Origin: a virus | IMG/VR virus record: IMGVR_UViG_3300031885_000031 | Span: 1-47,010 of that record | Length of the DNA: 47,010 nt | Strand: one strand, 5' to 3' | Shown here: piece by piece, positions 3,571 through 46,606 of the stretch | Layout: every line of letters begins with the position of its first letter | Position numbering within the stretch: the stretch's first letter is position 1 | Translations under genes and position numbers: made by a program | Notes under the pieces: generated by a model | What the model saw: only the letters and a program-made list of their open reading frames with translations | Told to the model about the DNA's origin: nothing | Database searches by the model: none

Positions 3571-4731
3571 ATGCTACTCGAACGCCGGAAGCGGGTGGTG
3601 TGGAACCCGGTCACGCAGCAGAACGAGGCCGCGCCTGCCGGGGGCCTGATGTCGCCGGGCACGTTGCCGGGCGACCTCTTCCGCGAGCGCCAGCACCAAA
3701 CTCAGGTCGGCTTGACCTCGCGGGTCGAGGCGGCGAATCCCCACTCCGGCTTCGGCGAACGGTCAACGTCACCCGAAGTGGTCGCGGGCACACGCCGTCT
3801 GCGGAACGCCGCCGCCCAAGAGGGTCTCTACGGCGAACAGATCGGCTTGGAGACCGGCGAAGTCCAGGGGGAGAGGCGCCTACTTCCGGCCCGCGAGAAA
3901 CTGGCGGGGGCTGGACTGGCACTCGGGGCGGGAGAGGCGACCCGCGCGAACCTCTACGGCGAGGCGGTCGCGCCGTCCAAGACGGCCGCCGACATCGCCG
4001 GGTTCACGGCGGCAGGGGCGGAAGCCGGACCCCGGGCGAGGGCACAGACGGGCCTTATCGGCAGTCAAAGCAAACTGCTCAGGGGCCAAAGTGCCTACTA
4101 TCGCGGTACGGGTGCTGGTGCGGCCAAGCAGGGGGCTGGGATGGAAAAGACCGGGCAGGCGGCCATCATGTCCGCGGAGGCCCAGAAGGTGGCCGCGGAC
4201 GCCGAAGCTCAGTCGGCCGGCGATCGGGTGGCCCAATCCGTCTTCATTCGGGAGCACCTACAGAAACATCCGGAGATGATGCCGCAGCTTCTGGGGTTCC
4301 TGACGCCGGAGGACCGGCAGGCGATGGCAGACGTCATGCGCCGCACGGAGGCCGCCGGGATTCTGGCGACGGCGGAAAACCTGGAACCGGAGTCTCGGGC
4401 GGGGCTTCTCTCGGAAGTCACCGGGCGCGAAGAACCTTACCCGGAACAGGGCGCCATTCCGTGGGTTGCCCGTACTCTCTGGGGCGGCGGGCAGGGCAGG
4501 GTAAAGCCGCCGGCCCGTCCGGTTGCGGCCCCGCCGGGTGTCCCGAGCCGCTCGCCGCTCATGGCCGGTGCAGGGGGGGTACCCGCGCCAGCCGCGAAAC
4601 CGGCGGCAGGGAAGGCCGGGGCGGTGAGGGCCGTACCTGAGCTCCTGCAGGAGTTCAAGCGGGCGTTCCGCGCGAACCCCCAGGATCCGACTTTGAGGCG
4701 GCTGGCCCAGGCTTTGGGACCTGACTACTGA
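3571..4731 (+). CDS. Ala-rich helical protein, possible internal virion protein (386 aa)
   Basis: The protein is dominated by Ala, Gly, Glu and Arg, with long predicted helical stretches (about residues 70-240) and a Pro/Ala-rich linker (about 300-355) before a short charged C-terminus. No catalytic motif is evident. It sits directly before the giant polyvalent-protein gene, a position often occupied by ejected internal virion proteins in short-tailed phages. That role is inferred from position and composition only. The ribosome site is modest (GAGG or AGG before ATG). Its last 77 bases overlap, antisense, the small membrane-protein candidate on the opposite strand. Confidence 0.72.
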   Translation: MLLERRKRVVWNPVTQQNEAAPAGGLMSPGTLPGDLFRERQHQTQVGLTSRVEAANPHSGFGERSTSPEVVAGTRRLRNAAAQEGLYGEQIGLETGEVQGERRLLPAREKLAGAGLALGAGEATRANLYGEAVAPSKTAADIAGFTAAGAEAGPRARAQTGLIGSQSKLLRGQSAYYRGTGAGAAKQGAGMEKTGQAAIMSAEAQKVAADAEAQSAGDRVAQSVFIREHLQKHPEMMPQLLGFLTPEDRQAMADVMRRTEAAGILATAENLEPESRAGLLSEVTGREEPYPEQGAIPWVARTLWGGGQGRVKPPARPVAAPPGVPSRSPLMAGAGGVPAPAAKPAAGKAGAVRAVPELLQEFKRAFRANPQDPTLRRLAQALGPDY

Positions 4732-4890: not shown

Positions 4891-7800
4891 GTGGGTGAGA
4901 TCGCAGAGATTCTGGCGGCGACTGAACCGGGCAGGACACGCCCGCGCCGGTTCCCCGGCGAAGGCGGGTTGCTCAGTCAGACGTTGGCGGCAACAGGCCA
5001 GGGGGCGCTTCGGGCGGCGTTCCCGCAAGAGGCCATTCCTGCGCCGTCTACGGAGCCTCTCCCGCTGCCCGAAGCGTCGCAACTTGGCACAACCCTGCCC
5101 GAGCGCGCGGTCGGCACTGGTTTTGAACTCATGCACGGCTTCGAGTCGCGGGTTGTCGAACCTGTTGTTGAAGGGATCACCCGCCTTGCGGGAGCAAGTG
5201 AGGCGGCGCGATCATGGACAGAGGAGTTCGAGACGCGACGTAAGAAAAGGATCCAGGGCTTGCCTGATCTGCCGACTGTAACGAAGGTCTTGAATGAGAC
5301 CGGCGGGGTCGGCGGCATCTTACTGTCAGGTCCATTGATCTACCCGGTTGTCGGTCTTGCTGGGTTCGGAGCAGGGTACGACGACGCTGCGCAGTATACA
5401 CTTGATGAGAACGTTCGCTGGCAGGCGGGGCTCGCAAACGGAGGATGGGACGCGGCCACCGCATGGGCTCTTGGCGTCCTGAAACCGTTGAGTGGTTCTG
5501 CGAAGGCGGGTATGGCGAACGTCTTGAAGAACGCGGCCAACATCGGAAGCGAAGGAGTCAAGTGGGGTATCTTCGGCACTCTCCTGAAGACAGGGCAGAA
5601 CACCATCGCCCGTGCTCTATATGATAATAACAGGGGCTTTTTCGACAACGTTCTCGCCTCTGGCGCGGGCGGCATAATTGTCGGTCTTGTGTTTGGAGTC
5701 CTCCGGGCGCTTGCTCATCTTCCTCCGGGCGCGATTGGAAAACCCCTCAAGGTCCACGAAGCCAAGAGCGCTCAGGGCGAGTACGCGGCCCTCGCCCCGG
5801 AGCATCAACCGCGCGCGGGTGAGACCCGGCCCGACTTCGCGCGGCGCGTCCGGCAGGAGTACGGCGGCGAGTACCCCGACTGGTTTCGCCGGTACTTCAT
5901 CACGGCTGAACCGCCGGCAGAGGGCGCGGCGCTCTACGGCGGCCTTCCCGTTCCGAGCCTCAAGCAACTCAAGGCCGCGGCCAGCGAACTCGGGCTCCTG
6001 TTGCCCCAGGTCAAGCGCTTCGCCCAGGTGCTGGCCAAGGGCGCGATGAGCGTCGAGGAGGCCGCCCGGCAGACAGGCGTTCCCTTGCAGGCCGCAATGG
6101 TCCTCGCCCAGCGGTTCGGGCAGCCGGAGCAGAAGACCTGGAAGGAAACGCTGAAAGAGGGCGAGGCGGGGCTGGCAGAAGTTCCAATTACCCCTACGAC
6201 GGGGGTAGAAGGCCCGCCGGTTGCGCCAGGAGCGACGCCTGCCCCGGATGCGGGCCAAGTGCCAACGGAAGGCGTCGGCGGGGTTCCTGCCCCCGCGCCT
6301 GCACCGGCGCGGGGCGAGGGGCCCGGCCTGAAAACTACTGTCGGTCCCGTTTCGATGATAGCATACCACGGAACCACGCCAAAGGCACTGGCGGCTATTC
6401 AGAAGAAGGGGTTTGCTCCCAAGATTCTGAACGGTCAATACTTTGGTGAAGGTGTCTATCTGACGCTGGACATGGCCGAGGCAAAACGGTACGGCGATGC
6501 TGTAGGAACATTCAACGTCCAACTGAAACAACCATTTGTCCTCGATTTAGACAAGTACAGGGGTGTTGAGGACTGGTATCACGAGATCGAAGATCGCATT
6601 GCTGTTTCGCTGTTCGACGAATACGGTGATCCGGTAACTGTACACACACGTGATCCAGAAACCCTCGGCCCCCAAGGTCGCCTTGCGCCTGAAGCGACAG
6701 AAGCCGCCTCTGCCATTACCCAGTTCCTGCAATCCCTGGGATACGATGGAGTGTTGGTAAAACAAGCGGGCAAGACGGCAGAAATTGTCGTCTTTGATCC
6801 GGCCAGTCTTGGTCGGCTCGCCGCCCCCGCGCCTGCCCCGGCGCAGGGCGAGGGGCCGACGGCGAAGAAGTTGCAGAAGGGCGAGTCAGGCATTCTTGCG
6901 GAACTCCGCGAACGAGCAAAGCAACCAGCCGATTTGACCTTGCCGCTTGGTGGCGTGGTAAACCCAAAGGCTGCGGCATTTATCCGCAAGATGGTGTCTG
7001 CCGTGCCGGAGTTTGCCATCGATCCGACCTTCACCGTGAACGCAGAAGGCAAACTTACCTTCCATGACGGGTTCCACTACGCCATCGAACCCGACTTGCT
7101 TGGGGTGGGAACGCCCAGCCCAGGAACACGCATCAGGGTTGACCTCGCCGCTTTTGGCATAAAGACTGAAGCCGCCGCCAAACGAGTTGCAGCACAGGCA
7201 GAGGGCAAGTACCCCAAAGTGCGCGCGGCCACTGCGCCGACGCCGTACAAACAGGCCGAGTACGCCGATGAGCCGGCCTTGAACGAGGCCCTGTTCAAGT
7301 GGAAGCAAACGACCGGAGAACTTCCCGATACTTGGGCAATGCCTTTTGAGCAGTATGTGGCCGAGCGCCTTACACACCCGCCTCTCCAGAAGACGGCCGC
7401 TTGGGGCCGAAGAGGCGTAGAGGTCATGTCCGCAGAAGAAGCAACCAAGGTTTACAGAGAGGAACACCGCGATGCCGTAGTACATGCCATCCAGAGAGGC
7501 AAGGTTCCGCCGGTTGAAAACCTGACTCCATACGTAAATGATAAGTGGGCAGGTTCGACCATTCGCAAAGCGATGGAAGCACGCGGCGCCGGCCCGGAAG
7601 TCAAGTCGTCCATCCCCGAAATCGCCGCTGCCCAGGAAGCGGACCTGGCCCGAGCGCGCGCGAACGTGCGACGGCCCGCGAGTGAGGGCGGGTACGGGCA
7701 ACCGCCTGCCAAGCAGCTTCAGCGTGCCGCCCCGCCAGCCGCCAAGAAGATCGAGAAGGCGGAAGCGCCGCCGGTCGCCGCCGGTCAACTACCCCCGCCA

Positions 7801-10800
7801 CCGAAGCCGCCCGCGCCGCCCGCCGCTGCGCCCGAACCGGAACCGGAACCGGAGGAACGGGTTGCCAAGGGCGCGGAGTTGGAAGCCGTTGTCCGTAAAG
7901 GTCAAGTCCAGGGCCGGGCGGAAGCCTTCGATGCCTTGACGAAACAGGCCAAGGCGGAAGTCAAGGGGGCTGTGGGCGCGGCCAAGGCTGAAGCCAAGAC
8001 CGAGGCCGAACAAGCGGCCATAGACGCTGAGCGCGAAAAGACTGGCGCGGTGTGGGACGTGCAACTCAAGGAGCGTCTGCGGGCCGAAGCGCAGGAAGAA
8101 GCGACGGCCACGAAGTTGTCTCAGGCACGGATGGCGCGACGTGCGGCCGTGGCCGAAGGCAGAGCCAACATCGCCAGTCTGTCGCTGCGGCTGAAGGCCA
8201 AACGTCAGACCGAGGACGAGATCCGAAGCGCGCTCGTCAAGGTCATCAAGCGGATGCCGAAGGAGATCAGGGGCAAACTCATCGCCAGAGTCAGAACCGC
8301 CATCACGGAAAACAAACTGGCGGATGCTCTGCAACTGGCGTGGAAGTACCTGACGGAGAATCATCAACGGGCGCTCATCAATGCCTCGAAGGCCGTCGCC
8401 ATGAAGATTCACAAGGCGACGTTGGAGTTTGACCCCAAAGACCCGACCGACCAAGCGTTGACGAGTGAGGCCGAGCGGGTCTTGGCGGCGCTCAAACGCG
8501 ACCTGATGAAACTGCAACCCGGAGAAACGCCGGAGGATGCGGTTGCGCGGCTCCTCAAGATCAAGGAGTTCCTGGTTGAAGGCTGGCACATGCACCGGGA
8601 CAAGACCGTGCTCTACACGCTTCAGGGCATGGCCGACGCGGAGGACGCGGCCCGGTCGGTACTCAAAGACCTTGAGACCTGGAACCCGCCGGCGGGCGTT
8701 GAACCGAAAGGCCCGATGCCCGGAACCCCGCACAGGTCCGTGGCCAACCGGGCATTGGACCTCAACAGTTACCCCGACACGGTTATCGAGGGCGACTTGG
8801 GACCGGAAGATGGGGTCCTTGAAACGATGCTCGTCAAGAACGTCGGGGTGGATGTCGTGCATCACCACTTCGCCGACTGGTACGCGGTCTATGACCCGAT
8901 GAACGATGCCGCCAAGGTGGCAACGGGCGGTATCCTTGGCAGCGAGAAAGACATCGCGTGGAAGTCCGACCCGTTGACGTTCGAGATCGGCGGGCAGAAA
9001 GTTACGGCAGAGCGCCGCTTCTGGCTCACCGTCTATGCGGTCTCGAGGGACGAGGACGCGATGGGGAAGTGGTTGGCGAGAACGGAAAGCGACCAGCCTG
9101 AACCATCGACCGCTGTATGGTCTATCCGGCGCGGCAAGGTGGCCTTCTCTTTCAACAATGCCGCCGAAGCCTACGAGTTGGCCGATGCGTTCGCCGCCGC
9201 CGACCCGAAGGGTGCCGCCTACGTCGATGCCTGTCTCGCCGCTCTCAACGCGCCGGGTAGGTACGAGAAGACTGATGCCACTCACGTCCAACTTTTCGGC
9301 ACACACATCGAGAAGGTTCCGGGCACGCGGATGCCGACTCAGTACAACGTGGCGGTGGAGAAGCAACGAGCCGTGCCCGACTTCTCGACAGCCTCGCCGA
9401 CGAACATCGTGAGGCACCTGGGCCATCATACCGCACGGTTGCCAGGCGGGCGCGGGGTCAGCATGGTCTTTGCCGACTTCGACAACACGATCATCCGTGA
9501 GGCGTGGGAAGATGCCGCGTTCAACAACTACGGGCCGACCCTCCGGGACGGCTGGATACTGATGCAGCAGATGGTGCCACATGGCGAAAAGCCGATCACC
9601 CTTCAGGCGTTTCTCGGTGAGCGGGTCGGTCGGGAAGTGCCGCAGATGCTCGACAGGCATCTGCGATACGTCGCCGGAGATGTCGGCCTCTCGTTTCAGA
9701 CAAGGTTGGAGGAGGCCGAGATCGATCCGTTCTTCCGCCGGGCACTTCACAACGCGATGGGCGCGGCGGTCGGCGGGTTCAAGTGGACGCCGATGGCGAA
9801 TCAGATACCGGCCGTCATCTTGCCGATGGCCGACACGAAACCTATGCACGCCGAGGACTTGGCGGGAGCCCTCGCGGAACTGCCCTCGAAATGGAAATGG
9901 GCGTGGGACATACTCCGGCGGGTCCGGTCCGACATCCGCTTCAGGGCGGAACAGTCCGACCCGCAACAATACCTCTCCTACGCGGAAGCGGCCCCGCGAG
10001 GACATGGGGCGAATCGTTGGTGGAGGCGGATCAAGAAGGCCGTCGGCTGGTCTGGCCGGGGCATGATCCGCGTGGACCAGTCGAACCGCATCGTCCATTT
10101 CCTGGCTGCGATCCGGCAGTTGATGCGCGAAAACAAGTTGACGGGGGAGGCACTTTACCAACGTGCCGGCGACATGGCCGCGAGGTGGATGTACCGGGTG
10201 GATGCACCTGTGACGAGCGCGGCCTACAACACCCCGGTCGGCAGGGCCGGGAAGTTCAGTACGGCGGTTGCGGCGGTGACGGCCTTTATGAAGGGCCGAC
10301 TCGCAAACTTCCAGGTCATGCTCCGGGCCATCAACGAGTACCGGCGGGACAAAGACCTGAGCAAGTTGCTCTACAAACTCACCATCGGGGCAATCGTGGC
10401 GGCGGGGTTCACGGCGGTCGGCATAGGTGGGGCGTATCTGTCCGGCAGGAAGGTGGGCGAAGGGCGCGGCGGCGTTGCGGGCGACTTCGTAGAGAACGCC
10501 CTGGGCAACACCTACGGGGCCACGGAAGCCATCCGCCTGATCCGGTCGAAGTCGGCCTACGGGGTCCAGGTGTTCTCAAGCCCGCCCGTCGCGGCGGCGG
10601 AACGGGTCGGCCAGGGTCTCGTCGGGTTGAGGACGGCCATCGAGAAGTCGAGCGGTGACAAGGCGTTCTCGGCCAGCCTAAAACTCCTGCGGGGGTCCGC
10701 CAGTCTGGCAGGGATACCGACCGATCAGGCGTTCAACCTCGTGCGGTTCATGCAGTCTATGCGCGTGGGACCGGGGCGGTTGCAGCCGATGAAGAAGAAG

Positions 10801-10935
10801 GGGGCGCGAAAGCCCAAGGCCCGGACGTATGCGGAGGCGCGGCGGGAGTTGTTCCAGAAGTTCAAGGGCCGTCCGGCTCGGGACTGGTGGGCGGCGGCAC
10901 GAAAACTCAGAGCCGAATGGGCAGAGAAAGGGTAA
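4891..10935 (+). CDS. Giant polyvalent-type virion protein with ADP-ribosyltransferase-like domain (2014 aa)
   Basis: This is the longest gene in the window. In order it shows: an N-terminal region with hydrophobic segments near residues 145-165 and 255-275; Pro/Ala linkers; an ADP-ribosyltransferase-like domain at about 489-640 with Y492-H493-G494-T495, G521-V522-Y523 and E631 in a V-V-F-D-P context, an H-Y-E-type triad; a region of unknown fold; a Pro-rich linker near 975-990; a long Ala/Glu/Lys helical or coiled-coil stretch (about 1000-1160); more unknown domains; and a membrane-like segment near 1828-1850. Giant mosaics of this kind are known as polyvalent proteins in phages and conjugative elements and are thought to be delivered with DNA. 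The domain is bracketed by two 35-bp near-identical linkers. GTG with GGAG 12 bases upstream is the likely start. Delivery and target are inferred. Confidence 0.85.
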   Translation: MGEIAEILAATEPGRTRPRRFPGEGGLLSQTLAATGQGALRAAFPQEAIPAPSTEPLPLPEASQLGTTLPERAVGTGFELMHGFESRVVEPVVEGITRLAGASEAARSWTEEFETRRKKRIQGLPDLPTVTKVLNETGGVGGILLSGPLIYPVVGLAGFGAGYDDAAQYTLDENVRWQAGLANGGWDAATAWALGVLKPLSGSAKAGMANVLKNAANIGSEGVKWGIFGTLLKTGQNTIARALYDNNRGFFDNVLASGAGGIIVGLVFGVLRALAHLPPGAIGKPLKVHEAKSAQGEYAALAPEHQPRAGETRPDFARRVRQEYGGEYPDWFRRYFITAEPPAEGAALYGGLPVPSLKQLKAAASELGLLLPQVKRFAQVLAKGAMSVEEAARQTGVPLQAAMVLAQRFGQPEQKTWKETLKEGEAGLAEVPITPTTGVEGPPVAPGATPAPDAGQVPTEGVGGVPAPAPAPARGEGPGLKTTVGPVSMIAYHGTTPKALAAIQKKGFAPKILNGQYFGEGVYLTLDMAEAKRYGDAVGTFNVQLKQPFVLDLDKYRGVEDWYHEIEDRIAVSLFDEYGDPVTVHTRDPETLGPQGRLAPEATEAASAITQFLQSLGYDGVLVKQAGKTAEIVVFDPASLGRLAAPAPAPAQGEGPTAKKLQKGESGILAELRERAKQPADLTLPLGGVVNPKAAAFIRKMVSAVPEFAIDPTFTVNAEGKLTFHDGFHYAIEPDLLGVGTPSPGTRIRVDLAAFGIKTEAAAKRVAAQAEGKYPKVRAATAPTPYKQAEYADEPALNEALFKWKQTTGELPDTWAMPFEQYVAERLTHPPLQKTAAWGRRGVEVMSAEEATKVYREEHRDAVVHAIQRGKVPPVENLTPYVNDKWAGSTIRKAMEARGAGPEVKSSIPEIAAAQEADLARARANVRRPASEGGYGQPPAKQLQRAAPPAAKKIEKAEAPPVAAGQLPPPPKPPAPPAAAPEPEPEPEERVAKGAELEAVVRKGQVQGRAEAFDALTKQAKAEVKGAVGAAKAEAKTEAEQAAIDAEREKTGAVWDVQLKERLRAEAQEEATATKLSQARMARRAAVAEGRANIASLSLRLKAKRQTEDEIRSALVKVIKRMPKEIRGKLIARVRTAITENKLADALQLAWKYLTENHQRALINASKAVAMKIHKATLEFDPKDPTDQALTSEAERVLAALKRDLMKLQPGETPEDAVARLLKIKEFLVEGWHMHRDKTVLYTLQGMADAEDAARSVLKDLETWNPPAGVEPKGPMPGTPHRSVANRALDLNSYPDTVIEGDLGPEDGVLETMLVKNVGVDVVHHHFADWYAVYDPMNDAAKVATGGILGSEKDIAWKSDPLTFEIGGQKVTAERRFWLTVYAVSRDEDAMGKWLARTESDQPEPSTAVWSIRRGKVAFSFNNAAEAYELADAFAAADPKGAAYVDACLAALNAPGRYEKTDATHVQLFGTHIEKVPGTRMPTQYNVAVEKQRAVPDFSTASPTNIVRHLGHHTARLPGGRGVSMVFADFDNTIIREAWEDAAFNNYGPTLRDGWILMQQMVPHGEKPITLQAFLGERVGREVPQMLDRHLRYVAGDVGLSFQTRLEEAEIDPFFRRALHNAMGAAVGGFKWTPMANQIPAVILPMADTKPMHAEDLAGALAELPSKWKWAWDILRRVRSDIRFRAEQSDPQQYLSYAEAAPRGHGANRWWRRIKKAVGWSGRGMIRVDQSNRIVHFLAAIRQLMRENKLTGEALYQRAGDMAARWMYRVDAPVTSAAYNTPVGRAGKFSTAVAAVTAFMKGRLANFQVMLRAINEYRRDKDLSKLLYKLTIGAIVAAGFTAVGIGGAYLSGRKVGEGRGGVAGDFVENALGNTYGATEAIRLIRSKSAYGVQVFSSPPVAAAERVGQGLVGLRTAIEKSSGDKAFSASLKLLRGSASLAGIPTDQAFNLVRFMQSMRVGPGRLQPMKKKGARKPKARTYAEARRELFQKFKGRPARDWWAAARKLRAEWAEKG
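6289..6323 (+). repeat. Left copy of a 35-bp linker repeat bracketing the ART-like domain
   Basis: It encodes a Pro-Ala linker ending in R-G-E-G-P. It matches 6823-6857 at 33 of 35 bases and is in the same reading frame, so recombination between the copies would delete or swap the intervening domain without a frameshift. Confidence 0.9.
6823..6857 (+). repeat. Right copy of the 35-bp linker repeat
   Basis: It encodes the Pro-Ala linker ending in Q-G-E-G-P just after the E-I-V-V-F-D-P strand of the ART-like domain. It differs from the left copy only at its 15th and 23rd bases. Confidence 0.9.
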
Positions 10936-23554: not shown

Positions 23555-24610
23555 ATGGCCTACTACAACGAGATCTCTGGCTTTTGCTGCCGGGTGCTGA
23601 GAGCGAGAATCGTCGATGGAAGATTGCCAGCCGGGACCGTTGACGAGCGCGACGTGCGGGAAGTCCGGCCCGCCGACATCCCCGCCGGCCAGGTCCACCT
23701 GTTCGCCGGTATCGGCGGATTCGGCCTCGCTGCCCGCCTCGCCAGGTTGCCCGACGACTTCGACATCTGGACGGCGGGATTCCCCTGCCAGGACATCAGC
23801 AGCGCCGGACGCGGCGCGGGATTGCACGGCGCCCGGAGCGGTCTGTTCTTTGAGATTGTGCGGCTCCTGCATGGGGTCCGACGACGACCGCTTTTTCTGC
23901 TCCTGGAGAATGTCTCTGCTCTGCGAACTCGCGGGTATGACCGGGTACGCGCTGAACTGGAAGAAGCAGGCTACGCCGTCCGGGCAGGAGTGGTGGGTGC
24001 TTGGGCGGTCGGAGCGCCGCACAGGCGGAACAGGGTGTGGATTGTGGCCCACCGCCAAGAGCGCGACGGGGGATTACCAGTACAGTCGGGGGAATCACAA
24101 CAAGCCTGTCCTGAACCTGAGCGGTGCTGTGAAGGACTGGCAGACGCCGAACGCGATGGCGGGCGGGAACAAGAGCCGGGGCGGGAAACGGATAGGCGAG
24201 TTGCTGCTGGCGGGGCAGGTGAAGGCGTGGCCGACGCCGAGAGCCGAGGACTCGGAGCAGACGGGGGCGCACGAGACACCGGACACGCTGACGAGCGCGG
24301 CGCGGACATGGCCGACGCCGAGGGCCAGCGAGAACGAGAACCGGACAACGCACCATGCACCGAGCCACGGAGTGACACACGGCAAGACGCTGGCGGGCGA
24401 GGTTGGCCTTCACGCCCCGGAGAGCCGCAGCATGAGTGGGAAGCGCCACGGCTGCTTGAACTCCCGATGGGTGGCCTCGCTGATGGGCTACCCGTCCGAC
24501 TGGTGCGCGCTCAAAACAGAGACGCCCTCAAAGCCTATGGCAACAGTATCGTCCCGCAGGTCGCGGCGGCGGTGATGAGGGCGATGATCGACGCGGGCGG
24601 GCGGGCGTGA
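23555..24610 (+). CDS. dcm: DNA (cytosine-5) methyltransferase (351 aa)
   Basis: Classical motifs appear in order: I, L-F-A-G-I-G-G-F-G (49-57), for S-adenosylmethionine; IV, F-P-C78-Q with the catalytic Cys; VI, E-N-V (118-120); VIII, R-R-N-R (157-160); and X, Y-G-N-S-I-V-P-Q-V-A (328-337). It would methylate the C5 position of cytosine in a short DNA site. The segment between motifs VIII and X, where target recognition lies, is unusually Arg/Glu/Gly/Asp-rich with repeated A-D-A-E. This same stretch carries a second open frame shifted by +1 whose product resembles another phage protein family (see 23616-24575). No restriction partner was seen, so protection from host restriction is likely. 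The ribosome site is weak. Confidence 0.87.
   Translation: MAYYNEISGFCCRVLRARIVDGRLPAGTVDERDVREVRPADIPAGQVHLFAGIGGFGLAARLARLPDDFDIWTAGFPCQDISSAGRGAGLHGARSGLFFEIVRLLHGVRRRPLFLLLENVSALRTRGYDRVRAELEEAGYAVRAGVVGAWAVGAPHRRNRVWIVAHRQERDGGLPVQSGESQQACPEPERCCEGLADAERDGGREQEPGRETDRRVAAGGAGEGVADAESRGLGADGGARDTGHADERGADMADAEGQREREPDNAPCTEPRSDTRQDAGGRGWPSRPGEPQHEWEAPRLLELPMGGLADGLPVRLVRAQNRDALKAYGNSIVPQVAAAVMRAMIDAGGRA
23616..24575 (+). other. +1-frame open reading frame overlapping the cytosine methyltransferase (319 codons)
   Basis: This frame stays open for 960 bases inside the methyltransferase gene. From about 23910 on its composition is that of a normal protein. It contains W-P-T-A (24045), W-Q-T-P (24138), two W-P-T-P-R-A motifs (24228 and 24309) and L-M-G-Y-P-S-D-W (24480-24503). 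Repeated W-P-T-P-x-A and a late L-M-G-[FY]-P-x-x-W are, from memory, marks of a phage family usually annotated as methyltransferase-associated. The first 100 codons look like shadow sequence (Ser/Pro/Ala-rich). It may be a true overlapping gene, the product of a +1 frameshift (a CTTTTTC tract lies at 23891-23897), or a by-product of codon bias. Confidence 0.35.
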
Positions 24611-24860: not shown

Positions 24861-25693
24861 CTGAGGCTTGCGACATCTTCGGCGACGGCCGGGCGGTGAT
24901 CTACTGCGGCAACTGCCTGGAGATTCTGCCGCAGTTGCCGGCGGGGAGCGTGGACGCCGTGGTGACGGATCCGCCGTATGGGCACAACAACAACAACGGC
25001 GACCTAATCCATCGATGGGAAGCCGCCCTGGGGCGCGGGCCGCACGGGGAAGCCAGGGCGATTGCCAACGATGGCGTGGAGGCAAATGAGTTGTTCAAGG
25101 CCGTGCTACCCGAAATCTCCCGCGTCCTCGGCCCCGGCTGCTGCTGCTGCTGCTGCTGCGGCGGCGGCGGCCCCGACCCGCAGTTCGCCCGATGGTCTCT
25201 CTGGCTCGACGAAGTTCTTGAGTTCAAGCAAATGGTGGTATGGGACAAGGGGCCGATGGGCATGGGCTGGCACTACCGGCGCTCCTATGAAACGGTGCTT
25301 GTCGCGCAGAAGCGCGGTGCGGCGTGCCGATGGTTCGATGAAACCGACCGCGTCGAGAACATCATCCGACCGGGCCAGTACGGAATCCGCAAGATCATCC
25401 CGTCTGCAAACGAACATCCGACACTGAAGCCTGTTGAACTGGCGGCACACTTCATTCACCTGCACACGCAAGCCGACCATCTTGTCTGCGACCCCTTCAT
25501 GGGCAGCGGCACGACGGGCCTTGCCGCCGTCCAGTTGGGCCGCCGGTTCATCGGCATCGAGATCGACCCGCACTACTTCGCCATCGCCCACAAGCGGATA
25601 CTCGACGCCGCGCCGCTGTTCACCCAGGCGACGGCCCGCGACCGGGCAGGCGAGCGGGGGCTGTTCGGGGAGGAGGCGAACGGTGTACGCTAA
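24857..25693 (+). CDS. DPPY-type site-specific DNA methyltransferase 1 (278 aa)
   Basis: The catalytic motif T-D-P-P-Y (37-41) precedes the S-adenosylmethionine motif D-P-F-M-G-S-G-T-T-G (about residues 212-221), the order of beta-class N6-adenine or N4-cytosine methyltransferases. A run of seven Cys followed by four Gly (from residue 95, TGC repeats at 25139-25159) lies between them; similar Cys/Gly runs before P-x-P-x-F-A-x-W are known in this family from memory. The TTG start is supported by the paralogue at 27020, which opens with the same T-E and N-terminal pattern. Probable role: protection from restriction or a regulatory mark. The methylated site cannot be read from the sequence. Confidence 0.87.
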   Translation: MTEACDIFGDGRAVIYCGNCLEILPQLPAGSVDAVVTDPPYGHNNNNGDLIHRWEAALGRGPHGEARAIANDGVEANELFKAVLPEISRVLGPGCCCCCCCGGGGPDPQFARWSLWLDEVLEFKQMVVWDKGPMGMGWHYRRSYETVLVAQKRGAACRWFDETDRVENIIRPGQYGIRKIIPSANEHPTLKPVELAAHFIHLHTQADHLVCDPFMGSGTTGLAAVQLGRRFIGIEIDPHYFAIAHKRILDAAPLFTQATARDRAGERGLFGEEANGVR

Positions 25694-27023: not shown

Positions 27024-27724
27024 CTGAGTGGGTAGACATCTTCAAGGACGGCCGGGCGCTTATCGCGTGCGGCGACTGCCTGGAGGTGATGAAGGAGTTG
27101 CCGGCGGGGAGCGTGGACGCCGTGGTGGCGGATATTCCTTATGGCGAAGTGAACCGACCCTCATCGGGCCTCCGAAATCTCGATAAAGGCATGGCCGATA
27201 CGGAAACCTTTGCGCTTGCCTTTGCCGTCGAACAATCGGCCCGGCTGGGCCGTTCTGTCTACCTGTGGTGTGGAACGGAACAGGTCAGCGAACTCCGGCA
27301 GCGGTTTGTTGCTCTGGGCATGACAACCCGACTTTGCATCTGGCACAAGAGCAACCCCAGCCCCATGAATGGAGAACATCTTTGGCTGTCGGCGCTCGAG
27401 GCGTGCGTCTTTGCTCGACATGATGGGGTCTACTTCGGACGGCATTGCCAATCACCTATCTGGCGCGGACCGTCAGAATCGAAACCACAACACCCAACCC
27501 AAAAGCCCTTGTGGCTCATGCGCGAACTCGTGGAAGCCAGTGTACCAGAGGATGGGACAACACTCGACTTTTGCATGGGCTCCGGCACGACGGGCGTTGC
27601 CGCCGTCCAGTTGGGACGCAGGTTCATCGGCATCGAGATTGACCCCGGCTACTTCAAGATCGCCCACAAGCGGATACTCGACGCCGCGCCGCTGTTCGTG
27701 CGGCCCCTGGAGTCAACTCCATGA
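27020..27724 (+). CDS. Methyltransferase 2 with D-I-P-Y catalytic motif (234 aa)
   Basis: It begins like methyltransferase 1 (T-E ... D-I-F-x-D-G-R-A ... C-L-E), and the last 45 residues around M-G-S-G-T-T-G-V-A-A-V-Q-L-G-R-R-F-I-G-I-E-I-D are nearly identical, while the middle is unrelated. The catalytic motif reads D-I-P-Y (38-41) in place of D-P-P-Y, and the binding motif begins F-C-M-G in place of F-M-G. The changed Pro may alter or reduce activity. H-P-T-Q-K-P before the binding motif is typical of this class. It overlaps both neighbouring genes by four bases. Confidence 0.82.
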   Translation: MTEWVDIFKDGRALIACGDCLEVMKELPAGSVDAVVADIPYGEVNRPSSGLRNLDKGMADTETFALAFAVEQSARLGRSVYLWCGTEQVSELRQRFVALGMTTRLCIWHKSNPSPMNGEHLWLSALEACVFARHDGVYFGRHCQSPIWRGPSESKPQHPTQKPLWLMRELVEASVPEDGTTLDFCMGSGTTGVAAVQLGRRFIGIEIDPGYFKIAHKRILDAAPLFVRPLESTP

Positions 27725-33490: not shown

Positions 33491-35197
33491 GTGGACCTGG
33501 CTGAATGGATGGCGACCCGGCTTCAGATCCTTGACAAGCAAACGGGCGCCCTCATCCCCTACATGCCGCACGACGAGCAGCGCAAGCTCGACTACGCCCT
33601 GGGCCTGCAACAGTCAGCAGGGCTGCCCGGCCGCTTGATCGTGCTCAAGGCCCGGCGCCGGGGTGTGAGCACATGGACCCAGGGCACGATCTTCGCCATG
33701 TGCCACCTCGCGGCGAACAAGCAAGGGTACTGCGTCAGCCACAGCGAGGAGTCGGCGGCGTACCTCTTGGAGATGTCGCACTCGTTTGATCGGCACTTGC
33801 CGGGCGGGGAGCGGCTGCCCAAGGCCCGCTCGAACCCGACGGAGATCATCTGGTCGCCGCCGCACTCCTCGCGGTTCGAGATGCACACTGCCGGCGCCGG
33901 TAGGACAGAGGGCGAGGCCAAAGTCGGCAGAAGCCGCCGGATCGACTATCTGCATGTCTCGGAGCTCGCGTTCTGCGAGGGGGCGGCGTCGATGATGCGC
34001 GGGCTCGTGCAGGGCGTGCCAGATGCGCCGGGTACGCTCATCGTCATCGAGTCCACGGCCAACGGCGCGGCGGGCGAGTTCTACGACCGTTGGCAGGCGG
34101 CCATCGAGGACAAGCACAAGCGCATGGACCCTACCGGCTACCTGCCTGTTTTCATCTCGTGGCTGACGGCCCCTGAGTATTCCCTTGTCCTCCGGGCCGG
34201 CGAAGACCTCGGCACGCCCACCGAACGGGAGCGCGACTTGATCCTGCTTGGCGCGAGACCCGAGCAACTGAACTGGCGGCGGCACAAGATCGCCCAGGAC
34301 TTCGGCGGCGACGAGGACAGGTTCTGCCAGGAGTACCCCGCCGAACCGTCGGAGGCTTTTGTGACGAGCGGGCGACCGGCGATACCAGCGAGCATCATCC
34401 GGCGGCATGACAAACTCTCGTGTGAGCCGCGGCGGTGCGTGGCCTTGGACGGCGGCAAGCTCATCGGCGTGCCGATGGACTCGCCGCGGGCCTGGTGGGT
34501 GTGGCGTGAGCCTGTGGACTCGCACGACTACATCGTGTTCGGCGACGTGATGGAGGGGAGTTTGAGCGACGCCAGCGACCCGCGCAGTCAGCCGGACTTC
34601 AACGGGGGTGTGGTGTTGGACCGGCGGACTATGGAGATCGTCGCGTCGATACAGACGCGGATGGATCCGGACCTTTTTGGCGAGCAGTTGATGGCGGCTG
34701 GCCGGTGGTACAACAACGCCTGGGCCTCGCCGGAGGCGAACGCTTCAGGCGTGGCGGCTGTCCTGCCGTTCGTCCGAAAGAACTACCTGCACCTGTATCA
34801 GCGGCAGCGGCTGGCGGAGAGTTTGAGCGCGGGCGACGATGCGCCGCTGTGGGGATGGAAGACGACGGTGGCCAACCGCGACCTGATGATCGACTCGTGG
34901 ATCGCCCTGTGCCGCCCGGACGCCGGCAACGACTGGAGCGGGAAGGCCGAGGTGTACGACCGGCGGATCGTGGCCGAGGAGAAAACCTTTGTCTGGCGCG
35001 GGGCGAAGAGGCAGCACCAGGTGGGCGCCCACGACGATCTGCTGTTCGCGTGCTTCGGTGCGGGGCAACTTCACCTGAATTGCCCGCGACAATTCCCGTT
35101 AGGACAAAAGGTGTTGCAGCCGATGTCAGGAGATAGAGGGCTGTACTACGACCTCGAGGGCGACGACGAACCGGATGAGGACTGGAGGACCGGATGA
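33491..35197 (+). CDS. terL: Terminase large subunit (568 aa)
   Basis: This is the motor that pumps DNA into the head. A deviant Walker A, L-K53-A-R-R-R-G-V-S-T61, is followed by a Walker B region, I-D-Y-L-H-V-S-E158, whose final Glu would be catalytic, and a coupling motif E-S-T-A-N-G. The C-terminal nuclease domain shows F-G-D352 and H-D515-D516, which would hold metal ions to cut the genome into headfuls or at a site. The length is normal for the family. GTG 33491 follows GGAGGG. The type of end produced (pac or cos) cannot be decided from the sequence. Confidence 0.93.
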   Translation: MDLAEWMATRLQILDKQTGALIPYMPHDEQRKLDYALGLQQSAGLPGRLIVLKARRRGVSTWTQGTIFAMCHLAANKQGYCVSHSEESAAYLLEMSHSFDRHLPGGERLPKARSNPTEIIWSPPHSSRFEMHTAGAGRTEGEAKVGRSRRIDYLHVSELAFCEGAASMMRGLVQGVPDAPGTLIVIESTANGAAGEFYDRWQAAIEDKHKRMDPTGYLPVFISWLTAPEYSLVLRAGEDLGTPTERERDLILLGARPEQLNWRRHKIAQDFGGDEDRFCQEYPAEPSEAFVTSGRPAIPASIIRRHDKLSCEPRRCVALDGGKLIGVPMDSPRAWWVWREPVDSHDYIVFGDVMEGSLSDASDPRSQPDFNGGVVLDRRTMEIVASIQTRMDPDLFGEQLMAAGRWYNNAWASPEANASGVAAVLPFVRKNYLHLYQRQRLAESLSAGDDAPLWGWKTTVANRDLMIDSWIALCRPDAGNDWSGKAEVYDRRIVAEEKTFVWRGAKRQHQVGAHDDLLFACFGAGQLHLNCPRQFPLGQKVLQPMSGDRGLYYDLEGDDEPDEDWRTG

Positions 35198-35427: not shown

Positions 35428-35663
35428 ACCAGTCACCCCCAACCATCAAGGACTTGCCCGAGTCGGCGATCACGGGTAACACTCTCGCCTTCTTGGCAAC
35501 TCAATACTCAGGGGATGAACACGGGGAATTGTGGAAGCGCGTCACCGTTCTGTTGTCGGAGATCAACCGATTGCGCGAGCACTACGAGAAGTGCCCGTTG
35601 ACCAAAGGTGAGCATGACGTGAGAAGTATATACGAGGATGCGGAGGCCCCGGCGCATGGCTGA
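35424..35663 (+). CDS. Small helical protein (79 aa)
   Basis: ATG 35424 follows AGGAGA and overlaps the preceding stop (ATGA). The central part (L-W-K-R-V-T-V-L-L-S-E-I-N-R-L-R-E-H-Y-E) is a single amphipathic helix. The end overlaps the portal start by eight bases. Confidence 0.65.
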   Translation: MNQSPPTIKDLPESAITGNTLAFLATQYSGDEHGELWKRVTVLLSEINRLREHYEKCPLTKGEHDVRSIYEDAEAPAHG

Positions 35664-37680
35664 CCCCTACACCGGCTCCGAGTCGGACCTCTCTGACCTG
35701 AACGCCCAGATTGACGAGATGCTCTACGCGGGTCAGGCCGCGAACACCGAGTGGAAAGACCTCTGGCAAGACGGCCTCGACTATTGCTTCGGAAACCAGC
35801 TGGCGGGTACGCGGCATCGCAAGGGCTGGGAACGCATCCAGGTGAACTACATCTACCCGGCCGTGTGCCAGCAGATGGCCCTCCTGTCGGCCCGTCAGCC
35901 GCTCGTGAACGTCTCGCCCCAGTCGCCTGAAGACGATGGGTTCATGGAGTTCTGGAAGGGCCTCTTGCGATGGCAGTTCACCCACGACCTGGACATGGAG
36001 GGCCAGTGCTTGGCGACCGCTCTTGACGCCGCGACCTACGGCATCTACGTGGCGCGGGTGAGTTGGGAGCCAAAGGGCGAATGGGACGACCGGACGAAGC
36101 GCTGGCGGGGCAGGCCGCGCGTCGTTCTCTTGCGACCGGAATGTTTCGGGGCCGACCCTGATTGCGAGAAACTGGCCGACGCGGAGTTCGTCTACTCCTC
36201 GCGCCGGATGCCCCTGGCCAGGGCGCTTGCCCGGTGGCCGGAACACGAGGGCATGATCCTTCTGGCGGCAAAGGAGGAAGGCGAGGGCGGGGTTGGGCCT
36301 TCGGGCGGGTACGAGCACGGGATGAGCGAGGCGATCAGCCTGCCCGAGCACGAGTCGGACTGGACGCCCTCGGGCCGGCCGAGCGTCGAGGGGCGGTTGG
36401 CGAACCTCTTGCGGAAGGTCCGGGGCTATGACTGGGCGGCATCGAAGAAGGTCGGCGGCAAGGCCGGCGACGACGATCTGCCCAGCCACGTCACGGTCAC
36501 GGAGATGTACTTCCGAGACCGGCTGGAGAAGGCCGGCGAGGAACGGCAGGAAGTGCCGCCGGAGGAACTGCTTGCGAAGGGGCAGATCATCGCCGACGGG
36601 GCGGCCTTTCGCGTGGGCGACCCGGCGATGTTCGCCGGCCAGGCGCTTGGTGAACTGGTTGCACCCGGCGCGTGGCCGGCCCGCATCGTCCGCCAGTGGG
36701 ACGACGAGCCGGTGTTTCCTTACGGGCGCCGGGTGCTCCGCATCGGCAAGACCATCCTGAACCCGGCGCCGGAGGAGCAGCGATACGACCTGACGCGCTG
36801 GCCGTTCGTGGTGGGAGTGAGTCAACTCCTGCCGCATATGTGGCAGGGCATGAACGGCGTCGAGATGGCGCGGGGGCTCCAGGACTGGGTGAACGTCTCG
36901 GCGGCCCACCTGTGCAACTACGTCAAGTTCTTCGGCGACCCCATCGTCAAGGTTGAGGACGGGGCGATAGCGGCGGACCCGGAGAACAAGAAGATCGCGC
37001 ACAAGATCGAGGCCGTGGCCGGGGCTATCTGGAAGCTGGCGAAGAACGCCAAGGACCGGATCATCCGCGAGCCGCCGCCCCCGATGAGTCAGGGCGTGAT
37101 GGAGGCGTGGGACCGCTTCGCGCGGGAACTTCAGGACCAGGTGGGGATGCAGCCCGTGGCGCGCGGGCGGCAGGCGACGGGCAACCCGACCGCGACGGAG
37201 ATCGCGGAACTGAGCCGGTCGAGCCGCGTCCGCACGAGTATGGCGGCGAAGCTCCTGGACTTCTGGGTCCGGGAGGTCATGGCGCTTGTGGCCGAGATGG
37301 ACCAGAAATACCTTGCCCCTGGCGACATGGTTCGCATCCTGGGCGAGGGACAACGGCAGGCATCGGTCGCCGTGGCGCAGGGGGCGACGGATGCCCGGTT
37401 CGATGTCGAGATCGGGATCGGGACGGCGCTGCCGTTTGACCAGGAACGCCAGCAGGAAAAGATGCTGGCCCTGCAGCCCGTCGTCGGCCCGGCGCTTCTG
37501 CCGGAACTGCTTGAGAGTTTCAGCGACGTCATCAAGGACCGGAAGGCGGTCTTGGCACGGGTGCAACAGTGGGCGGAGTTCGAGAAATGGCGCGAGACGC
37601 AAATGGCCATCGAGGAACAGGCGGCCGAAGCGCAGCCGGCAGAGGAAGCCGCGCCGGTCGGCGCACCTTCGGTATCGTGA
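35656..37680 (+). CDS. P22-like portal protein (674 aa)
   Basis: Size, gene position and sequence (N-Y-I-Y-P-A-V near residue 60, A-L-D-A-A-T-Y-G-I-Y-V-A, G-M-N-G-V-E-M-A-R-G-L-Q-D-W-V-N, T-E-I-A-E-L-S-R-S-S-R) fit the large portals of P22-like short-tailed phages. The portal is the twelve-fold ring at one head vertex through which DNA enters and leaves. ATG 35656 is chosen because GGAGG lies nine bases upstream; an ATG at 35638 would add six residues. The C-terminus is Glu/Ala-rich and helical. Confidence 0.88.
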   Translation: MADPYTGSESDLSDLNAQIDEMLYAGQAANTEWKDLWQDGLDYCFGNQLAGTRHRKGWERIQVNYIYPAVCQQMALLSARQPLVNVSPQSPEDDGFMEFWKGLLRWQFTHDLDMEGQCLATALDAATYGIYVARVSWEPKGEWDDRTKRWRGRPRVVLLRPECFGADPDCEKLADAEFVYSSRRMPLARALARWPEHEGMILLAAKEEGEGGVGPSGGYEHGMSEAISLPEHESDWTPSGRPSVEGRLANLLRKVRGYDWAASKKVGGKAGDDDLPSHVTVTEMYFRDRLEKAGEERQEVPPEELLAKGQIIADGAAFRVGDPAMFAGQALGELVAPGAWPARIVRQWDDEPVFPYGRRVLRIGKTILNPAPEEQRYDLTRWPFVVGVSQLLPHMWQGMNGVEMARGLQDWVNVSAAHLCNYVKFFGDPIVKVEDGAIAADPENKKIAHKIEAVAGAIWKLAKNAKDRIIREPPPPMSQGVMEAWDRFARELQDQVGMQPVARGRQATGNPTATEIAELSRSSRVRTSMAAKLLDFWVREVMALVAEMDQKYLAPGDMVRILGEGQRQASVAVAQGATDARFDVEIGIGTALPFDQERQQEKMLALQPVVGPALLPELLESFSDVIKDRKAVLARVQQWAEFEKWRETQMAIEEQAAEAQPAEEAAPVGAPSVS

Positions 37681-40455: not shown

Positions 40456-41043
40456 ATGGCAGACGAAAATGTTGATCTCGACTACATCGTCCTCAATCAC
40501 GAGATGTGGCCCGGTCGCCCCGACCTGATGATGGGCGTGCCGCCGGATGGCTTTGCCGGCGCCTCGCATCACAACGTCATCGCCCCGGTGTACCGCCTGG
40601 GCCAGAAGATCCAGGTCTACAACACCGGCGTCGTCGCCGGCTTGGCGGGGTACTCGGTCTTCATCTACCTCAAGTTGGAGTACCAAGATCTGGCGAACAT
40701 CCTGGCCGTGAAGGAGGTTGTCGCGCTTCACAGCGACGCCAACGGGACCGACGTGACGAACGATCTTGGCACGGACCTCGGCAACTCGCTCGGGCCTGCC
40801 GCCGTGGCCCTCGGCGCGATGACGACCGACTACTACGGTTGGTTCTGGTGTGGCGGCGTCTGTCCCGAGGAGTTTGTGCCGACGCTCACCGGAAACATCA
40901 GGACCGATGGGACGCTTGCTATCGGGAGCATCGGGCATGGGCCGCTCGCAACGCCGGGAGCGACGGTCGGCGAGATCGGCCTGATGGCCCCGGCCGCAGA
41001 CACGTCAACCGTCATCGGGTACGCGATGCACGCCGACGCCTAA
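40456..41043 (+). CDS. Capsid decoration-like protein, copy 1 (195 aa)
   Basis: It shares with the next gene the segments G-V-P-P-D, A-S-H-H-N-V, Y-L-K-L-E, V-A-L-H-S-D-A and D-Y-Y-G-W-F-W-C-G-G-V. Gly/Ala/Thr-rich strands suggest a compact beta fold. Proteins with a Y-G-W-F-W-x-G-G-V motif occur beside capsid genes in other phages and are taken to be minor head proteins. AAGGAG precedes ATG. The two leaders are also alike (A-A-C-G-T-A-A-G-G-A-G-A-A-G). Confidence 0.75.
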   Translation: MADENVDLDYIVLNHEMWPGRPDLMMGVPPDGFAGASHHNVIAPVYRLGQKIQVYNTGVVAGLAGYSVFIYLKLEYQDLANILAVKEVVALHSDANGTDVTNDLGTDLGNSLGPAAVALGAMTTDYYGWFWCGGVCPEEFVPTLTGNIRTDGTLAIGSIGHGPLATPGATVGEIGLMAPAADTSTVIGYAMHADA

Positions 41044-41117: not shown

Positions 41118-41723
41118 ATGGCTGACAGTTCACTGAGCGTCTACAAGGCGTTTCTGTACGACAAGTGGCCGGGTGATGCCGACCCGCGCTTCGGCGTGCC
41201 GCCGGACCTTTTCATCGGCGCGTCGCATCACAACGTCGTGGCGGCGAAGTACCCCATCGGCACGAAGGTCCAGGTCTACCATCCCGGTGCGACCGCAGGT
41301 TCCCTCGCGGGCTATTCGACCCTCATCTACCTCAAGTTGGAGATGCAGGACGCGACGAACCTGTTGGCGGCGGCCCAGATGGTCGCTCTCCACTCGGATG
41401 CCGTGCCCTACGACGCGACCAACGAGGTTGCGACCCTGCTCGGGACCACGATGGGGCCTGCCGCCATCGCCCTCTCGGTGATGACGGTGGACTACTACGG
41501 CTGGTTCTGGTGCGGCGGCGTTGTGCCGGTTGACTTCCTCGAAGCGACCAACGTCCTGATCACCACGCACCTGCTGTACACCGTCAACACCGTGGCCATC
41601 GGCGACATGTGCTGGTGCAACCTGGCTCCGACCGCGCCGCTCGTGAGCGGGGAGATCGGCTTCTGTCTCCCTGCCGCCGACACCACGACCCGCGTCGGGT
41701 TCGCCATGATCGCAGACACCTAA
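41118..41723 (+). CDS. Capsid decoration-like protein, copy 2 (201 aa)
   Basis: It is a paralogue of copy 1 with the same landmarks in the same order, differing in the N-terminus (K-A-F-L-Y-D-K-W) and in the 145-180 segment, which has extra Cys residues (C-W-C). The closing pattern P-A-A-D-T-T-T-R-V-G-F-A-M differs only slightly. The duplication seems old. Two related head proteins could occupy different capsid positions. Confidence 0.75.
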   Translation: MADSSLSVYKAFLYDKWPGDADPRFGVPPDLFIGASHHNVVAAKYPIGTKVQVYHPGATAGSLAGYSTLIYLKLEMQDATNLLAAAQMVALHSDAVPYDATNEVATLLGTTMGPAAIALSVMTVDYYGWFWCGGVVPVDFLEATNVLITTHLLYTVNTVAIGDMCWCNLAPTAPLVSGEIGFCLPAADTTTRVGFAMIADT

Positions 41724-42136: not shown

Positions 42137-43033
42137 ATGCCCCTGCGCAGCTTCGGCCTGTTGTGCGATGTGGTCGAGGCGTATTCCGGCGTTGGCACGC
42201 CGGGGAACGCCCTTGCTCACGTTGCGGCCGGTTGCCGGCGGGTGCTCGACGGGTTTGACCCGCGCGACGGCCATCTTCACGTCTGGGGCTGCCTTGAACC
42301 GCTGGCGGAACTCACGCTCGCGGCGAACGTGACGGGCACGGCTGTTGGCGTGTACAACGCGGGGTTGGCGCGGACCACGATCACGGCGACGACGCCGATC
42401 TTCGTTCCGTCACAGGTGGGCCAGACGATCACCGTGGCGGTTGTTGGCGCTCTCGTCATCTACTCGTACACGTCGCCGCTTCAGATCGTGGCGACAGGCG
42501 GTGCGGACTTTCTGGCCAGTGCCGTGAGTCTGCCTCACCACGGCGTGTACGACCTGCCGGCGGGGTTCAACGGGCTCCTCGAAGGGCCGGTGTATCCGTA
42601 CTCCTCAACCCTCGACATGGCGGACCTGGAAGAAGTGTCGCCCCAGACGATCTTCGAGGAGTGGCAGAGTTCGCAGACGCAGGACACGCCGGCGAAGTAC
42701 GCGATCATCCCGAAGGCGCAACTGGCGACCCAGGTGGTCCAGGGCTGGGCGATCATCGTCTCGCCGAAACCCGACGTGGACCGGCTCGTCCGATACCGAT
42801 ACCGGGTTGACGGCAGCGCCCTCGCGGCCGTGGACGACTCTTACCACTGGCCCATCGGCGGTATGCACATGGATAGCGTATACGAGTACGCGGCCCTGGC
42901 CGATGCCGAGGCCCGGCTGACGAAACAGCCGGGCATGTGGGAAGCCCGGTTTCAGCAGGCGATGGGGCTCGCCATCGACGCCGACCGGGCCCTCTTTGAG
43001 ACGCAGGGAACCGCCTCCATGCAGGAAGGATAG
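42137..43033 (+). CDS. Head-tail connector/adaptor-like protein (298 aa)
   Basis: The protein combines an N-terminal helical part, a beta-rich middle (T-I-T-A-T-T-P-I-F-V-P) with short strands, and a mixed C-terminus with Y-D-L-P-A-G-F and H-M-D-S-V-Y-E-Y. In gene order it takes the place of the adaptors that extend the portal in short-tailed phages. Identification rests on position more than on sequence. AAGGAG precedes ATG. Confidence 0.62.
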   Translation: MPLRSFGLLCDVVEAYSGVGTPGNALAHVAAGCRRVLDGFDPRDGHLHVWGCLEPLAELTLAANVTGTAVGVYNAGLARTTITATTPIFVPSQVGQTITVAVVGALVIYSYTSPLQIVATGGADFLASAVSLPHHGVYDLPAGFNGLLEGPVYPYSSTLDMADLEEVSPQTIFEEWQSSQTQDTPAKYAIIPKAQLATQVVQGWAIIVSPKPDVDRLVRYRYRVDGSALAAVDDSYHWPIGGMHMDSVYEYAALADAEARLTKQPGMWEARFQQAMGLAIDADRALFETQGTASMQEG

Positions 43034-46204: not shown

Positions 46205-46606
46205 GTGAGCCTCTACACCGAGACCATTCTGAAGGCCGCCCTTGCCGCAGGAACCGATGCGGCCAAGGCCGAGTCCATGACCCTCGATGAACTCGCGGTC
46301 ATGGCGGGGGTTGACGCCAAGAAATTGCCCAAGGAATGGGACGCCGCCAAGGAAAAGGCGGCGCTGGCGGCGTACTACGCCCCGGCGGAGATCAGGGGCG
46401 AGGTCGAGGCAGAAAACGGCGAATGGAATATCGAGGTTCATCACGAGTACCTGGGTTGTTTCACGGTCCGCACCGCTGACCACCCCGACCCGCCTCGCGT
46501 TGTGGATGCCGAGAAGCGGCGCGAGATCGTGGCGGCGGCTACGGCGGCGAGACTGGCTGAGGACTCTCGATTGCGTTTTAAGCCGCCGGAGGGCAAGGCA
46601 CTCTAA
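46205..46606 (+). CDS. Conserved tail-module protein, copy 2 (133 aa)
   Basis: It differs from copy 1 (275-676) at seven of 133 residues, all before residue 76. The start here is GTG after TAGGAGG, eight bases after the 540-residue gene, and the stop overlaps the next ATG (TAATG) exactly as in copy 1. Because the upstream gene differs, the two copies are not a simple overlap of contig ends. The better ribosome site suggests that this is the functional late-operon copy. Confidence 0.85.
   Translation: MSLYTETILKAALAAGTDAAKAESMTLDELAVMAGVDAKKLPKEWDAAKEKAALAAYYAPAEIRGEVEAENGEWNIEVHHEYLGCFTVRTADHPDPPRVVDAEKRREIVAAATAARLAEDSRLRFKPPEGKAL

What the first reader, a model, noticed from the sequence alone, without database searches (positions are those of the whole stretch)
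6289..6857. ADP-ribosyltransferase-like domain bracketed by 35-bp direct repeats
The repeats (33 of 35 identical, same frame) encode Pro-Ala linkers on both sides of a domain with Y-H-G-T, G-V-Y and an E in V-V-F-D-P. The enclosed DNA looks AT-richer than its flanks. The layout suggests a swappable effector cassette inside an injected protein: recombination between the linkers would exchange the domain without breaking the frame.
Basis: partly seen in the sequence, partly recalled or inferred. Interest (0 to 1): 0.7.

Follow-up and report, generated by a model that had tools for sequence, protein, structure and literature searches.

The report
Phage ejection-type protein carrying ADP-ribosyltransferase module
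A giant phage protein, probably shot into the bacterium with the phage DNA, carries a toxin-like ADP-ribosyltransferase module in a variable region between two nearly identical linker sequences; the module type is already known from phages, and the only close relative has entirely different cargo at that place.

Summary
Two 35-bp direct repeats (33/35 identical, same frame, 534 bp apart) encode Pro-Ala linkers inside a 2014-codon ORF (4891-10935). Their DNA identity exceeds what the shared peptides require (P about 3e-4), and the DNA between them is the most GC-poor stretch of the gene (53% vs 63%). The enclosed domain is a polyvalent-protein ADP-ribosyltransferase: PF18760 (31.5 bits, cut-off 31.2) and PF00644 (29.7, cut-off 26.7). 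H493, Y523 and E631 are invariant in 32 sequences. An AlphaFold model (pLDDT 80) matches the ART fold; its top PDB hit is a cyanophage pre-ejectosome chain. The phage is podovirus-like, so the gene most likely encodes a virion-packaged, ejected polyvalent protein (inferred). The only close relative found keeps the N- and C-terminal blocks but has unrelated, ART-free cargo between them. The region is thus exchangeable in evolution, but the replaced segment starts about 110 bp before repeat 1 and ends over 1 kb after repeat 2. None of 67 other ART loci has such flanking repeats. Repeat-mediated swapping is plausible but unproven. The ART is a new member of a known kind; the repeat bracket is an unusual detail.

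The parts
4891..10935 (+). 2014-codon ORF encoding a giant polyvalent/ejection-type protein (P0001)
   Evidence: homologue P0003 in L003
4891..6181 (+). Conserved N-terminal part (residues 1-308, and 355 to about 430), shared with L003 P0003 at 40-46% identity
6181..7980 (+). Variable cargo segment (about residues 430-1030), replaced by unrelated sequence in L003; holds the ART, a further module without Pfam match (about 660-920) and Pro-Ala-rich linkers
   Evidence: the 3' limit is soft: DNA-level homology resumes only at 8576
6289..6323 (+). Direct repeat copy 1, Pro-Ala linker APAPAPARGEGP
   Evidence: 33/35 with copy 2; P 0.0003 given the peptides
6823..6857 (+). Direct repeat copy 2, Pro-Ala linker APAPAPAQGEGP
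6331..6822 (+). ART domain (residues 481-644), H-Y-E triad H493 (6367-6369), Y523 (6457-6459), E631 (6781-6783); low-GC block
   Evidence: PF18760 31.5 bits (cut-off 31.2), PF00644 29.7 bits (cut-off 26.7); triad invariant in 32 rows; AF2 pLDDT 80, pTM 0.76; ART folds in PDB; GC
8576..10749 (+). Conserved C-terminal block, 69% aa and 71% nt identity to L003; no Pfam or PDB sequence match
33491..35197 (+). Terminase-like gene (context)
   Evidence: PHROG 24361
35638..37680 (+). P22/SU10-like portal gene (context: short-tailed phage)
   Evidence: PF16510 and PF23899 above cut-off
42137..43033 (+). SU10-type adaptor gene (context)
   Evidence: PF24175 29.7 bits, cut-off 27

Best explanation
The ORF encodes a virion-packaged, ejected polyvalent protein of a short-tailed phage. 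Its conserved N- and C-terminal blocks probably serve packaging and ejection. The middle is a variable cargo region joined by flexible Pro-Ala linkers. One cargo module is an H-Y-E (PARP/diphtheria-toxin-type) ADP-ribosyltransferase of the ART-PolyVal family. After ejection it would transfer ADP-ribose from NAD+ to a host protein early in infection, to favour phage takeover or blunt a defence. The ART block was acquired fairly recently from a source of different base composition, and the two 35-bp linker copies are a trace of how it arrived (linker duplication or recombination at linker DNA). Shown: repeat, composition, ART family, triad, fold, different cargo in a relative. Inferred: packaging, ejection, enzyme activity, target, and the route of acquisition.
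For: PF18760 and PF00644 over their cut-offs on the trimmed domain. Triad invariant in 32 diverse sequences. AF2 model pLDDT 80 with 52 PDB matches at E <= 0.001, led by the cyanophage A4 pre-ejectosome, then PARPs and diphtheria toxin, and viral ART-PolyVal proteins. ART domains lie in about 2,700-3,200-aa proteins of other short-tailed phages next to tail genes. Relative L003 keeps both ends and has unrelated cargo with no ART, including a piece shared with DarB-like antirestriction polyvalent proteins; its middle also dips in GC3. Codon bias of the ART block is foreign (z about -5.9), while ARTs in most other phages match their host ORF's GC. The polyvalent-protein papers predict packaging and injection and call ARTs the commonest modifying domain there (PMC5512222; PMC9503650).
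Against: No direct evidence of packaging, ejection or NAD+ chemistry. No Pfam or PHROG hit to any ejection-protein family in the conserved ends. Only one close relative. No intermediate with an empty or differently filled site between the same repeats.
Confidence: 0.78

Rival explanations
1. Repeat-mediated effector exchange: the two in-frame linker repeats act as homologous recombination sites, so co-infecting phages swap the bracketed effector without breaking the frame, much as repeats flanking target-recognition domains do in type I restriction specificity genes.
For: Repeats are DNA-level copies exactly flanking the one compositionally foreign block. Domain exchange by 19-53-bp in-frame repeats is documented in HsdS-type genes (PMC3077401). 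Cargo does differ in a relative.
Against: The segment that differs in L003 extends well beyond both repeats. No other viral contig has this linker DNA, none of 67 ART loci has flanking repeats (best 25/35), and L003's own linker repeat is explained by shared peptide (P 0.05). A single pair also predicts loss of the domain by deletion as readily as exchange.
Confidence: 0.25
2. The repeats are a by-product: tandem duplication of the linker (or of a linker-ART unit later reduced to one), or gene conversion between two Pro-Ala linkers, with no role in exchange.
For: Short GC-rich Pro-Ala DNA is prone to slippage and conversion (general knowledge); the gene is rich in such linkers. The same giant-protein lineage shows other short internal repeats, such as four N-terminal copies of a 36-nt motif in L003. 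The repeat is unique to this genome.
Against: Coincidence of the two copies with the exact edges of the compositionally distinct block.
Confidence: 0.45
3. The similarity of the linkers is convergent: both were selected as Pro-Ala spacers and GC-rich codon choice made the DNA alike.
For: Pro-Ala-rich linkers recur in this protein and in L003, and L003's repeat can be explained this way.
Against: P = 0.0003 for 33/35 given the peptides; no synonymous shuffle above 30/35.
Confidence: 0.05
4. The ART is a catalytically dead or structural module (scaffold inside the ejection core).
For: An ART-like fold is part of a solved pre-ejectosome, so the fold can serve structurally; activity untested.
Against: Full H-Y-E triad kept and invariant in 32 sequences.
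Confidence: 0.12

Closest known systems
Polyvalent proteins with ART-PolyVal domains (Iyer et al. 2017, PMC5512222; PF18760)
   Same: Large multidomain phage protein with an H-Y-acidic ART among other modules; variable domain architectures; predicted injection
   Different: This ART is shorter: it lacks the WFG...DG.P lead-in and the KS..N.GTWS tail seen in most giant-protein ARTs here and is bracketed by DNA-level linker repeats. Its invariant acidic residue is E; the paper describes a D.
Podovirus ejection proteins / pre-ejectosome (T7 gp16 group; cyanophage A4, PDB 9k3a)
   Same: Short-tailed phage, giant gene behind the tail genes; top structural match of the ART model is a pre-ejectosome chain; domain swapping between ejection proteins is described as common (PMC8954989)
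   Different: No sequence similarity of the conserved ends to solved ejection proteins
Domain movement (DOMO) in restriction specificity genes (PMC3077401)
   Same: In-frame direct repeats of 19-53 bp flank an exchangeable domain
   Different: There exchange is shown by many alleles; here one allele and one distant relative
T4 Alt
   Same: Packaged and ejected phage ADP-ribosyltransferase acting early on the host (PMC5512222)
   Different: Alt is of the R-S-E clade, a different ART clade

Membership tests
ART-PolyVal (PF18760) | Profile match over the curated cut-off | tested here: met
   31.5 vs 31.2 bits for the trimmed domain; marginal: 31.0 with linkers and 24.5 within the whole protein, 29.6
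ART-PolyVal (PF18760) | H in strand 1, Y in strand 2, acidic residue in strand 5 of an ART fold | tested here: met
   H493, Y523, E631 invariant in 32 rows, on predicted strands 7-15, 39-45 and 148-154 of the model; ART folds in PDB
ART-PolyVal (PF18760) | NAD+-dependent ADP-ribosyl transfer | not testable with these tools
   Needs enzyme assay
Phage polyvalent protein | Several distinct domains in one large polypeptide with lineage-specific variable architecture | tested here: met
   2014 aa with ART plus other segments; cargo differs from homologue P0003, which has a DarB-like piece. Only the ART has a named family.
Phage polyvalent protein | Packaged in the virion and delivered at infection | not testable with these tools
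   Inferred from gene position and literature
Podovirus ejection protein | Sequence or profile homology to known ejection proteins | tested here: inconclusive
   No Pfam, PHROG or PDB sequence match of the conserved ends; structure of these ends not predicted
DOMO-type repeat-mediated domain exchange | Alternative domains between the same flanking repeats in related alleles | tested here: inconclusive
   Linker DNA found in no other viral contig; the only relative has different cargo but no matching repeats

The most novel reading that the evidence does not exclude
Phage ejection proteins carry a cassette slot whose in-frame linker repeats let effector domains be exchanged by homologous recombination between co-infecting phages: a repeat-bracketed effector cassette in an injected phage protein.
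Probability: 0.2. Interest if true: 0.62.

Novelty: new member of a known kind. Interest (0 to 1): 0.38.

Why it matters
It adds a compositionally foreign, recently placed ART to the known set of phage polyvalent effectors, and a homologous pair with conserved ends and replaced cargo. If the repeats do mediate exchange, it would show how phages reload injected effectors in frame and would give a simple DNA signature for finding other cassette slots.

Tried and rejected
First AF2 job with seven rows, six of them near-identical, gave pLDDT 35 and was discarded. The linker DNA pattern had no match in viral contigs. Profile scans of genome contigs for the C-terminal block and for the ART gave no relatives, and tblastn of the whole protein in named phages gave none. 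A K[RKQ]L.[KR] motif at linkers of P0001 and P0003 looked enriched and is absent from the other genes checked, but after correction for motif choice P is about 0.07, so it is only a lead. L003's 44-nt linker repeat is not significant at DNA level. The D of VVFDP as catalytic residue was rejected because it varies (K or N in relatives), whereas E631 does not. PADLOC and NCBIfam gave no usable hit. The papers found do not report repeat-bracketed domains in ejection proteins, but the library is partial.

Full report
Observation. The window is a 47,010-base virus record. ORF 4891-10935 (+, GTG start) has 2014 codons. Two direct repeats, 6289-6323 and 6823-6857, match at 33 of 35 bases and lie 534 bp (178 codons) apart in the same frame. 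They are the best 35-bp pair in the gene. In 60 shuffles of synonymous codons that keep the protein, the best pair reached at most 30 of 35; drawing codons for just the two linker peptides gives 26.8 on average and 33 or more in 0.03%. The copies are therefore DNA duplicates, not only similar peptides. The 499 bp between them have 53.1% GC and GC3 52%, against 63.0% and 73% for the gene. Correcting for amino-acid content, expected GC3 is 0.745 (SD 0.033) and no simulation was as low; windows at the ART have the lowest z of the gene, -5.9.

The domain. Trimmed to residues 481-644, it passes the Pfam cut-offs for ART-PolyVal (31.5 vs 31.2) and PARP (29.7 vs 26.7). With linkers attached the ART-PolyVal score is 31.0, so membership is marginal by score, but all 31 aligned relatives match PF18760 too. 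A profile search of IMG/VR gave 71 loci. In a 32-row alignment H493, Y523 and E631 are invariant, while the D of VVFDP is not (N or K in others). A first AlphaFold run with seven rows failed (pLDDT 35); with 32 rows it gave pLDDT 80.2 and pTM 0.76. Foldseek ranks cyanophage A4 pre-ejectosome chain 9k3a_B first (E 3.6e-5), then PARPs and diphtheria toxin. VIA-align gives Z 9.2 over 137 residues (rmsd 4.8) for 9k3a_B and Z 8.1-8.7 for tankyrases and diphtheria toxin. TM-scores are moderate (0.4-0.5), rows within one Z unit are tied, and Z near 8 alone would be weak; the sequence family, the triad and the fold agree. In the viral library the best matches include ART-PolyVal-named proteins and a MuF fusion.

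Context. The phage encodes a P22/SU10-like portal, an SU10-type adaptor, a terminase and a major head protein, so it is podovirus-like. The contig ends overlap imperfectly (276-1077 with 46206-47010, 89.8%), which suggests a circularly permuted, nearly complete genome assembled from a mixed population. The giant gene then follows the structural genes, the usual place of ejection proteins. Comparable ART-bearing giant genes lie beside tail genes in podovirus ctQRb9 and, with the same layout, in Limnohabitans phage DC33, and ARTs sit near residue 670-800 of 2,700-2,900-aa ORFs in many IMG/VR loci. There the ART carries a WFG...DG.P lead and a KS..N.GTWS tail that the window's version lacks.

Test of the swap idea. 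One close relative was found, L003 (IMG/VR 3300031862_000365), with a 2751-aa homologue. Residues 1-308 and 355-457 match at 40-46%, and 1031-1953 at 59% (69% from 1237 on). Between them the sequences are unrelated: about 570 residues here, about 1,160 there. L003's record has no ART by profile or sequence (profile score -0.5). Part of its cargo (1395-1467) resembles DarB-like antirestriction proteins of Burkholderia phages, and its cargo also has lower GC3 (0.57-0.66 for residues 601-1300 against 0.70-0.84 elsewhere). So the region is a variable cargo slot. But DNA-level homology ends at about 6181, some 110 bp before repeat 1, and resumes only at 8576 (protein level about 7981), more than 1 kb after repeat 2. 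The difference seen is therefore not an exchange at the repeats.

Are the repeats general? Of 67 other ART loci, none has a comparable flanking pair: best 25 of 35, mean 20.6, against 33 in the window. The linker DNA has no exact match in viral contigs. L003's own linker pair (34 of 42) is expected from its peptides (P 0.05). One other ART-bearing family (L078-L080) has a 33/35 internal pair, but it does not flank the ART.

Mechanism. Most likely (0.78) this is a packaged, ejected polyvalent protein whose ART module ADP-ribosylates a host protein early in infection; target unknown. Packaging, ejection and catalysis are inferred from gene context, fold precedent and the literature (PMC5512222; PMC9503650; PMC8954989). 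The repeats are probably a scar of how the foreign ART block was acquired, or a later linker duplication. Repeat-mediated exchange, as documented for restriction specificity genes with in-frame repeats of 19-53 bp (PMC3077401), remains possible (about 0.2-0.25) and is testable by population sequencing.

Verdict. Observation confirmed; interpretation partly supported. The ART is a new member of a known kind; the repeat bracket is unusual and unexplained.

Noticed in passing
276-1077 and 46206-47010: The contig ends overlap at 89.8% identity over 812 bp, suggesting a circularly permuted, nearly complete genome assembled from diverged variants; terminal genes are therefore counted twice.
   Followed up: partly
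Residues 659 and 941 of ORF 4891-10935; L003 4199-12454, residues 476, 567, 737, 1148, 2692: A K[RKQ]L.[KR] motif recurs at linker regions of both giant proteins and in none of the other genes checked; possible processing or binding site, but P is about 0.07 after correction for motif choice.
   Followed up: partly
L003 4204-4485; window 4891-4930 and 4336-4377: Four N-terminal copies of a GEIGDILDAT-like motif in the L003 giant protein, one in the window protein and a weak one near the end of the upstream gene; short leucine-containing repeats also seem to start some other ART-bearing giant proteins (by eye). Possibly a virion docking signal.
   Followed up: no
8576-10749: About 720-residue C-terminal block, 69% identical to L003 and without any Pfam or PDB sequence match.
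   Followed up: partly
40499-40867 and 41158-41528: Two adjacent genes (195 and 201 aa) behind the major head protein are 70% identical in DNA over 377 bp, a tandem paralogue pair.
   Followed up: no
24872-25621 and 27035-27697: Two repeat pairs (110 bp at 82%, 124 bp at 90%) downstream of a C5 cytosine methylase gene (23555-24610), hinting at a duplicated segment.
   Followed up: no
L078, residues about 417 and 471 of the 2285-aa ORF: A 33/35 internal repeat pair in another ART-bearing protein, 54 residues apart and not flanking the ART.
   Followed up: no
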